Shown here one piece after another: positions 29,327-49,737 of a stretch of 49,805 nt of DNA (positions within the stretch are counted from its first letter, which is position 1; every line of letters starts with the position of its first letter). The position numbers and the translations under genes are program-made. The DNA is from an uncultured Chlorobiaceae bacterium (GTDB lineage: Bacteria; Bacteroidota; Chlorobiia; Chlorobiales; Chlorobiaceae), in the NCBI GenBank assembly GCA_903939765.1, contig CAJAIK010000029.1:1-49805 (forward strand). The letters run 5' to 3'. Under the pieces are notes generated by a model that saw only the letters and a list, made by a program, of their open reading frames with translations, searched no databases and was not told the origin of the DNA.

Positions 29327-29977
29327 ATGGACAACAAATCAAATGGTAAGCTTGCTGCTTTAGCCGCAGGCGGTGCTGCATCAATGGGTGCCTTGTTTTT
29401 CGCGGTATCGTTTTTAACCGGGTACAAGTTGCCTGCCGCGAACCTTAACGAGTACCTCACGCCTTTGCGTTCTTTTGCGGGGTGGATTTCGCTGATTACC
29501 TTTGCCTCGCTGGTTATCATGGGTCTTGGCAAAATGTCGTCGAGAATCAGTTCCAAGTGGTTTTTAAGTTTTCCGCTCAGCATTCTTGCCATTGTTGCGG
29601 TGATGTTTGCCTCTTTGGGGCTAAGGCCTTCGGGGATTTTGCATTCAACCACGGGCCGCACGGTGACGCTTGAGGGAAAGTATATCCGTTCAGTTGCTGA
29701 ATTGAAAGCCTATCTTGAAAAGCCGGTCTTGTCTCCCGGTGTACCTCTTGCTCCTGCCGGTTTTGATTTCAAGGCCGCGGAGAATCTTTGGGTAGCCAAA
29801 TGCAACATCTGCCATACTCAGCTTTCCGTCATAGACGTGCTCAAGACCAAGTACAAAAAGACCGGCAAGATTGATGTGGTTGTCAAGAGCATGGAGGACA
29901 AAGCGGGTGGCTTGATTACTCCGGCAGATGCAATAACAATCGAGCAGTTCCTTAACGAGGGGAAAATACCGCTCTGA
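29327..29977 (+). CDS. pscC: Photosynthetic reaction-centre cytochrome c-551 (cytochrome cz), PscC
   Basis: 216 residues: three membrane helices (about 10-31, 50-68, 78-97) followed by a C-terminal periplasmic monohaem domain with CNICH at 159-163; the Met in VVKSMEDKAGG (M189) is the likely sixth ligand. In green sulfur bacteria PscC is the membrane-bound donor that re-reduces P840 of the type I reaction centre and takes electrons from the cytochrome bc complex or soluble cytochromes. Helix number, length and haem position all match. It stands alone rather than with pscAB, as is known for this phylum. It is followed by a strong terminator and is the best taxonomic marker in the window. Confidence 0.93.
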   Translation: MDNKSNGKLAALAAGGAASMGALFFAVSFLTGYKLPAANLNEYLTPLRSFAGWISLITFASLVIMGLGKMSSRISSKWFLSFPLSILAIVAVMFASLGLRPSGILHSTTGRTVTLEGKYIRSVAELKAYLEKPVLSPGVPLAPAGFDFKAAENLWVAKCNICHTQLSVIDVLKTKYKKTGKIDVVVKSMEDKAGGLITPADAITIEQFLNEGKIPL

Positions 29978-48095: not shown

Positions 48096-48806
48096 TTAAT
48101 GGCATGATGAACAACTCTTCCGTGTTTGGCGATGCAATGCATCATCAGGCGCCTGCACATCGCTCACGGGCCTGCTCTCCTCTTCCGTAATGTTGTTGCT
48201 TCTTCTGTTGGAGCTGTCTGGGCTGTCAGGGGCAGATTCATTTTCTTCCTCATTGAATGCAAGTTCCCTTGATGACGATGAGTTTGGAGTGTCAAAATTT
48301 CCCGTGTTCTGATCATCCGCTTCGTGATACTCCCCCGGATCTTTCTGCTGAGAAAGTTCCGCAAGGGACAAACGTTCAACAAAAGGTTTCGTCGCCTCTT
48401 TTTCTTTGGGTGCCCAGGAGTTTGAGATTTTTTTACCAAACTCAAGAATGCCCGAAAAAGGCTGGATATTGAAGTAGGTACCAAAACCAACAACCAGAGA
48501 AAGAATGGCTATTATCAGCAGTTCAACCGGGCGCTGTATCCCCCGGGTTGTTTTTGTTTTCAGATAGGAAAAGAAGGCGTGCCAGTTAACAAGAAATAGA
48601 TGGCCAAGAGAGAGCAGGGAAAAGGCAAATCCAAAAATGATATGCTGATTCTGCCATGCTGGTTTGGTAAGCCCGCCCAACTCCCAGATAACTCCAGGAG
48701 TTCTGGCGGGAAAAATATAGAGAACCACGCCTGAGACCAGAATCATGAAAAAAGAGAGAAAAAGCCCGAAGCTCGTAAATACCCGCCAACTGAAAGATTT
48801 TTTCAT
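48096..48806 (-). CDS. DUF4405-like membrane protein with a C-terminal CSSCH
   Basis: 236 residues. The N-terminal part has three membrane helices (about 8-31, 52-76, 92-113) with His residues on helix 2 (QHIIFGFAFSLLSLGHLFLVNWHAFF), as in DUF4405 proteins that resemble cytochrome b subunits, and the GTYFNIQPFSGILEFG segment is also characteristic. The next 100 residues form an acidic, Ser/Asn-rich tail that looks disordered. The protein ends in RKSCSSCH, a CxxCH haem c motif at the very last residues. In DUF4405 proteins I know the C-terminal part is a short folded domain, so this tail is unusual. It may take part in membrane electron transfer; that is inference. Confidence 0.7.
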   Translation of the reverse strand: MKKSFSWRVFTSFGLFLSFFMILVSGVVLYIFPARTPGVIWELGGLTKPAWQNQHIIFGFAFSLLSLGHLFLVNWHAFFSYLKTKTTRGIQRPVELLIIAILSLVVGFGTYFNIQPFSGILEFGKKISNSWAPKEKEATKPFVERLSLAELSQQKDPGEYHEADDQNTGNFDTPNSSSSRELAFNEEENESAPDSPDSSNRRSNNITEEESRPVSDVQAPDDALHRQTRKSCSSCH

Positions 48807-49057: not shown

Positions 49058-49737
49058 AAGCACTTGTGTACGTAAAATATGGAATCAATGGCCGTAAATT
49101 ATGGAATCGACATCAGAAAATGCTTCTGTTTTCCAGCCATTCCGCTATTCCGAACACCTGATTGTTTATAAAGAGCAAGGAGGTCTCGATCATTGATACT
49201 TGTATATCACTCAACTATTTTGTATTTAATAAATTACATCACTGTTGCGCTTTAACGTGCTTTTGAGTACGGATTATTTTGTTGCACTGGTCACTCTTCC
49301 TTCATGATACCTCAACTGGCAGAACTTTGGGCTCATGCAAAAAAAGTCAGCATGGCCGACGGCGTAGATGGCGGTTTTACCCACTCTCATGCCCGGCAGA
49401 TCGTTTTGCTCAAAAAAGATCGAAACACCATTTTTGACTGTAACTCACTGGCAGGCCGAAAAGTCATCCGGAACATCAGATTCAACAACCCGACATTTGG
49501 CCTCTGCAAAGAGATCAAAACCAGAGAGCACAAACTGACCGTCACCAACTTCATTTTCAATGCTTAACCCTTACTGGAAAAAAAACTTAAGGAGATACTC
49601 AACTTCGATTGCTGTCAGGCGGGTCGCAAGGAATATTCTCTTTATGCAGGATGGAGGGGAGGTCTAAGCGCTTCATAGGAAATAATTCCGTAGTATAAGG
49701 GACAGACAGAAAACAGATACACATGCCCCTGTAAATC
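49058..49737. other. Decayed region without a supported gene
   Basis: A plus-strand frame of 87 codons (49304-49567) continues after one stop codon for another 34 codons or so (to about 49671), and the minus strand is also largely open across 49300-49600 with two stops. Neither frame shows a motif I recognise, so this is probably the remains of a mobile element or a broken gene. The bases just before 49738 may be the end of an insertion sequence. Confidence 0.35.

What the first reader, a model, noticed from the sequence alone, without database searches (positions are those of the whole stretch)
48096..48119. Haem c motif at the extreme C-terminus of a DUF4405-like protein
The gene ends with CSSCH and a stop. 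c-type haem motifs normally sit inside a small folded domain with a distal ligand. Here the motif follows a long acidic, disordered-looking tail, so a haem would hang on a flexible tether from the membrane part. It could be a tethered electron carrier, a thiol site that binds metal, or the remainder of a lost domain.
Basis: partly seen in the sequence, partly recalled or inferred. Interest (0 to 1): 0.55.

Follow-up and report, generated by a model that had tools for sequence, protein, structure and literature searches.

The report
Membrane cytochrome with tail-end haem site
A small membrane protein of green sulfur bacteria ends in a strongly conserved haem-attachment motif that looks like half of a multihaem cytochrome repeat, so it probably carries a c-type haem at the tip of a floppy tether next to its membrane haems; this is a new variant of a known kind of electron carrier.

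Summary
The 236-residue DUF4405 protein (window 48096-48806, minus strand) ends ...KSCSSCH-stop. It is not an error, a chance match or a decaying remnant: 36 distinct Chlorobiaceae homologues from two genera end in [A/V]P[D/N]D-x-LHR-x5-C-x-[S/A]-CH, with nothing (27) or five residues (9) after the His. The linker before it evolves fast (dN/dS 0.51); the last 19 codons are the slowest part (0.09). The element matches the second half of a dihaem repeat unit found in 10-18-haem cytochromes of the same family (28 tails 27-43 bits; best of 2,800 shuffles 20.5). Untailed long paralogues usually sit directly behind separate small c-type cytochrome genes (16 of 17; tailed 0 of 30). Another DUF4405 protein and the DUF4405-related FezC bind haem b (PMC11334425). 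Best reading: a b-type membrane cytochrome with one covalent c-haem on a flexible periplasmic tether, passing electrons between membrane and periplasmic cytochromes. Haem attachment, electron direction and physiological role are not shown. New variant of a known kind: a fused b/c membrane cytochrome is described (Cytbc, PMC5566968), and PscC has the same layout of three helices plus a mobile haem domain.

The parts
48096..48806 (-). Whole gene, 236 aa, three-helix DUF4405 protein with C-terminal CxxCH
   Evidence: ORF list; PF14358; 36 distinct tailed proteins including this one
48582..48779 (-). DUF4405 domain, residues 10-75
   Evidence: hmmscan E 1.8e-11
48471..48788 (-). Three predicted membrane helices (residues 7-31, 48-73, 93-112)
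   Evidence: AlphaFold2 helices, pLDDT about 65-81 in ten-residue blocks; hydropathy peaks centred at 22-23, 64, 105
48642..48644 (-). His55, candidate haem b ligand
   Evidence: invariant 35 of 35 rows with a residue there and invariant in the 39 rows of A1
48600..48602 (-). His69, candidate haem b ligand, 14 residues after His55 on the same helix
   Evidence: invariant 36 of 36 rows and in the 39 rows of A1
48156..48401 (-). Acidic, disordered-looking linker (residues 136-217)
   Evidence: net -12; pLDDT mostly <50; dN/dS 0.52 in own clade
48099..48155 (-). Conserved end module QAPDDALHRQTRKSCSSCH (residues 218-236), half of a dihaem repeat unit
   Evidence: entropy 0.65 bits (residues 216-236) vs 2.21 (136-215); HMM scores; dN/dS 0.11 in own clade
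48132..48134 (-). His225 in the LHR motif, candidate distal haem ligand
   Evidence: invariant 36 of 36
48099..48113 (-). CSSCH haem c attachment motif (C232, C235, H236)
   Evidence: C232, C235, H236 in 36 of 36, but rows were selected for CxxCH near the end

Best explanation
The gene makes a small membrane cytochrome. Three helices with two conserved histidines 14 residues apart on helix 2 would form haem b sites, probably by pairing two copies as proposed for FezC. An acidic, flexible periplasmic linker of about 80 residues (56-138 in the family) ends in one half of a class III/c7-type dihaem unit, which takes one covalent c-type haem. The haem tip swings between the membrane haems and periplasmic cytochromes and so does within one chain what separate small cytochromes seem to do for the long DUF4405 paralogues. 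Shown here: motif, conservation, selection pattern, match to multihaem units, lack of a cytochrome gene directly upstream. Published for relatives: haem b in another DUF4405 protein and in FezC. Inferred: haem attachment at this tail, periplasmic side, dimer, partners. Unknown: electron direction and physiological role.
For: 36 distinct tailed proteins; P220, D222, L224, H225, R226 invariant though not used to select them. dN/dS end 0.09, linker 0.51, membrane part 0.22 over all 36; the same order in each of three clades tested (30 of the 36 rows). An HMM from 46 dihaem units of 11 multihaem proteins scores 28 distinct tails 27.2-42.6 bits; 2,800 shuffles that keep CxxCH reach at most 20.5. 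Nine of 36 tails run on for five residues ending in W, like the units. One of the multihaem source proteins, scanned as an example, hits PF14522 Cytochrome_C7 at E 2.2e-25 (L189), and the own genome has a homologue. Long paralogues lie directly behind small c-type cytochrome genes, mono- or dihaem, in 16 of 17; tailed ones in 0 of 30. Positive charges favour the tail outside (mean K+R: N-term 2.6, loop1 1.8, loop2 4.5, after TM3 2.2; 31 of 36 rows). A ResB-type c-haem maturation protein (39 bits, partial match over the cut-off) and PscC are in the genome. PMC11334425 (sections 11-12 read): recombinant DUF4405 and FezC bind haem b; FezC modelled as homodimer.
Against: No haem data for this protein. 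The end module is far shorter than a normal cytochrome domain. In the repeat unit the LH histidine may serve another haem, so the tail haem may lack a sixth protein ligand. Foldseek found no meaningful PDB match (best E 1.1); the model is poor (pLDDT 63, pTM 0.37). No conserved gene neighbour across subclades. Fewer than half of the family's genomes carry the tail. Individual tails have been lost or broken (G074, G082), so it is dispensable in some lineages. Co-occurrence with the multihaem protein is not significant (34/36 vs 39/50, p 0.064). The multihaem proteins were found with a pattern drawn from the tail, so part of the match is by selection.
Confidence: 0.7

Rival explanations
1. The end is a thiol or metal site (for example a disulfide relay or a metal-binding CxxCH), not a haem site.
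For: CxxC-H can bind metal or form a disulfide; no further fold follows.
Against: Match over about 17 residues to a unit of 10-18-haem cytochromes; LHR invariant; small c-type cytochromes directly upstream of 16 of 17 long paralogues.
Confidence: 0.12
2. The haem tail is a docking or reconstitution element: it serves mainly to plug into the soluble dihaem or membrane-anchored multihaem cytochrome and complete a unit there, rather than to shuttle.
For: It resembles half of their repeat unit; the multihaem protein is found in 34 of 36 genomes counted as tailed.
Against: The multihaem protein is also in 39 of 50 genomes not counted as tailed; p 0.064. Linker length varies 56-138 in 33 rows, which favours a free tether.
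Confidence: 0.15
3. Non-functional remnant of a lost cytochrome domain or of a sequencing frameshift.
For: G082 and G074 show that the tail can break or be lost; G071 holds a stray motif without a DUF4405 ORF in that stretch.
Against: dN/dS 0.07-0.11 at the end; intact in 36 distinct sequences; no cytochrome remains after the stop.
Confidence: 0.03

Closest known systems
DUF4405 / FezC membrane cytochromes (PF14358; PMC11334425)
   Same: DUF4405 domain, conserved histidines; half-size form that could dimerise as the paper proposes for FezC (that paper's DUF4405 has six helices; three helices for FezC is my inference)
   Different: No CxxCH tail is mentioned in the sections and passages I read; no apbE or ferrosome genes were recognised among the neighbours listed (no dedicated search made)
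Class III / cytochrome c7-type multihaem proteins of Chlorobiaceae (PF14522, PF02085)
   Same: End module resembles the second half of their 46-50-residue dihaem repeat (P-x-D-x-LHR-x5-C-x-x-CH)
   Different: One CxxCH instead of 10-18; on a membrane cytochrome, after a disordered linker
PscC (cytochrome c-551/cz) of the green sulfur reaction centre (PF10643)
   Same: Three N-terminal helices and a C-terminal haem c part that is mobile (PMC9529944, passages); encoded in this window at 29327-29959
   Different: PscC has a folded haem domain with 53 residues after CxxCH; different family; no DUF4405
Cytbc: cytochrome b561 domain fused to a C-terminal dihaem cytochrome c, Gallionellaceae sp. of enrichment culture KS (PMC5566968, passage)
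   Same: Membrane b-type part fused to C-terminal c-type haem; small periplasmic cytochromes in the operon, as with the long DUF4405 paralogues
   Different: b561 not DUF4405; dihaem domain, not a half unit at the last residue; not compared by sequence here

Membership tests
DUF4405 (PF14358) b-type cytochromes | Match above the family cut-off | tested here: met
   44.8 bits, cut-off 26.7
DUF4405 (PF14358) b-type cytochromes | Conserved histidines in the membrane domain | tested here: met
   His55 in 35 of 35 and His69 in 36 of 36 rows
DUF4405 (PF14358) b-type cytochromes | Binds haem b | not testable with these tools
   Reported for an Oscillospiraceae protein and FezC (PMC11334425), not for this one
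Class III / c7 cytochromes | Sequence of the repeat unit (LHR...CxxCH) | tested here: met
   Second half only: 27.2-42.6 bits vs null maximum 20.5; caveat: the multihaem proteins were found with a pattern taken from the tail
Class III / c7 cytochromes | Two or more haem motifs | tested here: not met
   One CxxCH only; so not filed as a member, only as bearing half a unit
Class III / c7 cytochromes | Bis-histidine haem ligation | not testable with these tools
   H225 is a candidate only
PscC | PF10643 match | tested here: not met
   PF10643 finds only 29327-29959 in the own genome; no PF10643 row for this protein at E 1
Cytbc-type b561-c fusion | Cytochrome b561 domain | tested here: inconclusive
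   PF01292 E 0.011, below its cut-off; in the own long paralogue E 1.6e-5, also below

The most novel reading that the evidence does not exclude
In the homodimer, the two tails come together and rebuild a complete dihaem unit from two half units: each tail's LHR histidine ligates the haem of the other tail. The protein would then be a self-assembling two-b, two-c haem wire, whose c-type end forms only when two copies pair.
Probability: 0.15. Interest if true: 0.7.

Novelty: new variant of a known kind. Interest (0 to 1): 0.5.

Why it matters
It would be a very short natural haem c attachment module, placed at the very end of a protein without a cytochrome c fold of its own, and would give DUF4405 cytochromes a direct route to periplasmic c-type cytochromes in green sulfur bacteria. 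One carrier is probably the photoferrotroph Chlorobium ferrooxidans: L102 (G024:C37) lies on a contig of the same length, 68,231 bases, and with the same short paralogue as NZ_AASE01000011. How electrons pass its inner membrane is, as far as I recall, largely unassigned.

Tried and rejected
Frameshift or lost downstream domain: rejected, no continuation in any frame, intact in 36 distinct sequences. Conserved operon for the tailed gene: none across subclades; dapA follows only in the own subclade and L009. Solved-structure relatives of the tail peptide: none at E 10; of the family profile: nothing meaningful, best E 0.077, ATP synthase b. Fold search: no usable match. Link with the multihaem protein by co-occurrence: 34/36 vs 39/50, p 0.064, not significant; that script counted G082 as tailed although its motif is broken. 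Single origin of the tail: not resolved; the tree needs three changes (30 tailed rows of 62, with the divergent L179; seven of the 36 tailed rows were dropped by my trimming pattern); L120 there is the frame-broken G082 and L077 (G074) apparently a deletion. Charge counts dropped 5 of 36 rows. Clade-wise dN/dS used 30 of 36 rows. The HMM null used 28 tails, those of the 4,829-ORF set that passed a membrane-helix pattern. Not done: link with cyc2, because I had no Cyc2 sequence or model. Literature: 'DUF4405' gave 8 papers, 7 listed; the listings show no description of this CxxCH-tailed protein, but they were partly capped (15 of 37 shown, 10 of 111), only open-licence papers are held, and of most papers only title and abstract start were seen. 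Papers seen in passages: PMC11334425 (sections 11 and 12 in full), PMC8302410, PMC12727194, PMC9529944, PMC7762298, PMC5566968.

Full report
What is there. The finding's coordinates hold K-S-C-S-S-C-H-stop at the end of a 236-residue ORF on the minus strand, 48096-48806. The ORF matches PF14358 DUF4405 over residues 10-75 (E 1.8e-11). AlphaFold2 on 39 family sequences gives helices at 7-31, 48-73 and 93-112 with moderate confidence, and an unstructured linker (pLDDT mostly under 50); overall pLDDT is 63 and pTM 0.37, so the model supports little more than the helix count. The genome (99.4% complete) belongs with Chlorobiaceae by its relatives and has two more DUF4405 paralogues.

Is it real? 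Yes. One scan of reference genomes returned 52 loci, titled Chlorobiaceae, Chlorobiales or Chlorobiota; a search of 86 family genomes had matches in 80. Of 126 ORF rows matching the membrane part, 78 end in CxxCH followed by at most 12 residues and 48 do not; rows overlap because the two sources hold the same genomes in part. The 78 reduce to 36 distinct proteins, this one included. Twenty-seven end exactly at CxxCH; nine have five more residues. Residues P220, D222, L224, H225 and R226 are invariant in all 36, although only CxxCH was used to pick them. Mean column entropy is 1.07 bits in the membrane part (1-130), 2.21 in the linker (136-215) and 0.65 at the end (216-236). Nei-Gojobori dN/dS for membrane part, linker and end: own clade (11 rows) 0.20, 0.52, 0.11; NTSRW clade (8) 0.14, 0.62, 0.09; third clade (11) 0.27, 0.41, 0.07; all 36, 0.22, 0.51, 0.09 (six rows are in no clade group, and synonymous sites are near saturation in the last two sets). 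The end is thus the most constrained part of the protein.

Where the motif comes from. A DNA pattern for L-H-R-x5-C-x-x-C-H (one of the five and one of the two x narrowed) had 95 matches in 98 genomes of the order, spread over 56 genomes, against 2 for the reversed control. A stricter pattern matched in 32 of 394 genomes sampled from the phylum, all of the family Chlorobiaceae. I fetched 20 stretches. Eleven ORFs in them carry 10-18 CxxCH, with repeats of 46-50 residues holding CxxCH-x3-8-LH-x4-8-CxxCH-x3-4-W; the one scanned against Pfam together with a second, L180, hits PF14522 Cytochrome_C7 at 2.2e-25 and 5.3e-13. The own genome has such a protein too (G000:C8). An HMM of 46 units, from the multihaem proteins alone, was run against 4,829 ORFs of other loci: 37 tailed DUF4405 ORFs scored E 3.4e-10 to 1.7e-5, the broken tail of G082 2.4e-5, and the first match outside tailed, dihaem and multihaem proteins 0.026. 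Twenty-eight distinct tails scored 27.2-42.6 bits; 2,800 shuffles keeping CxxCH in place scored at most 20.5, mean 6.0. Caveat: the multihaem proteins were found with a pattern taken from the tail, so LHR agreement is partly by selection; agreement outside the pattern (P-x-D before LH, T-x-x-W after CH in nine tails) is not. Descent and convergence cannot be separated over so short a stretch; I favour descent.

Genes next door. Long paralogues (more than 215 aa, most about 278, with another C-terminal domain) have a c-type cytochrome ORF directly upstream in 16 of 17 cases with at least 800 bases of upstream sequence; in nine the stop overlaps the start by 4 bases. Ten of the 17 show a dihaem ORF, eight of these often with a monohaem gene before it; the dihaem proteins are 76-115 aa and hold one unit. 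Tailed genes: 0 of 30. Short paralogues: 2 of 19, one of which (L053) looks like a frame-broken long gene; this class also holds the fragments L030, L044 and L055. So DUF4405 in this family appears to work beside small periplasmic cytochromes, and the tailed form carries a half unit on its own chain. The tailed gene's other neighbours differ between subclades.

How it probably works. PMC11334425 (sections 11 and 12 read, other passages seen) reports that a recombinant DUF4405 protein binds haem b and that FezC, a relative, does too and could form its haem sites by homodimerisation. The present protein has two invariant histidines 14 apart on helix 2, enough for two haems in a dimer (inference). 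Charge distribution favours N-terminus inside and tail outside (mean K+R 2.6, 1.8, 4.5, 2.2 for N-terminus, loop 1, loop 2 and after helix 3; 31 rows). The genome has a ResB-type protein (one partial match, 39 bits, above cut-off), so covalent haem attachment outside the membrane is plausible. The linker, net -3 to -17 and 56-138 residues long in 33 rows, would let the haem swing. Electron direction is open.

What it resembles. PscC, also in this window (29327-29959), has three helices and a mobile C-terminal haem domain (PMC9529944, passages), but a folded domain and another family. PMC5566968 (passages) describes a b561-dihaem c fusion with small periplasmic cytochromes. The kind is therefore known; the DUF4405 basis, the half unit and the extreme C-terminal placement are new as far as the listings show, which are limited.

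Results against. Not all Chlorobiaceae have it: by my hand count, 36 of 86 genomes, of which G082 is frame-broken at the motif and G076 frame-broken in the membrane part (L030/L086); a divergent tailed protein in G040 (L179) comes on top, and contig-end fragments (for example in G059) cannot be scored. G074 has lost the motif, apparently by deletion. The tree does not show the tailed set as one clade. Co-occurrence with the multihaem protein is not significant. There is no structural match and no direct haem evidence.

Noticed in passing
window 29327-29959 (+): PscC, the reaction-centre cytochrome c-551/cz (PF10643, E 6.4e-92), lies in the same window.
   Followed up: partly
L176:1548-1790 (-), L175, L177, L182, and upstream of other long DUF4405 paralogues: Tiny dihaem cytochromes of 76-115 aa made of one CxxCH-LH-CxxCH-W unit, often overlapping the start of a 278-aa DUF4405 gene by 4 bases.
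   Followed up: partly
L170-L173, L178, L180, L183, L185, L187-L189; own genome L192: Multihaem cytochromes with a hydrophobic N-terminus whose haem number varies from 10 to 18 between genomes by repeat copy number; in L183, L188, L189 and L192 beside a gene that looks like a GlcD/FeS oxidoreductase (name from memory).
   Followed up: partly
L186:899-2157 (own genome, C115): Own long DUF4405 paralogue has a monohaem cytochrome c gene directly upstream, its ORF overlapping the DUF4405 ORF.
   Followed up: partly
L181 (G071:C3:32658-32702): Stray stop-to-stop stretch ending DELHRPTKASCATCH without a DUF4405 ORF in the fetched stretch; looks like a remnant.
   Followed up: partly
window 49304-49567 (+): 87-aa ORF with a relative beside the tailed gene in L008; perhaps a transposase remnant (guess).
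   Followed up: no
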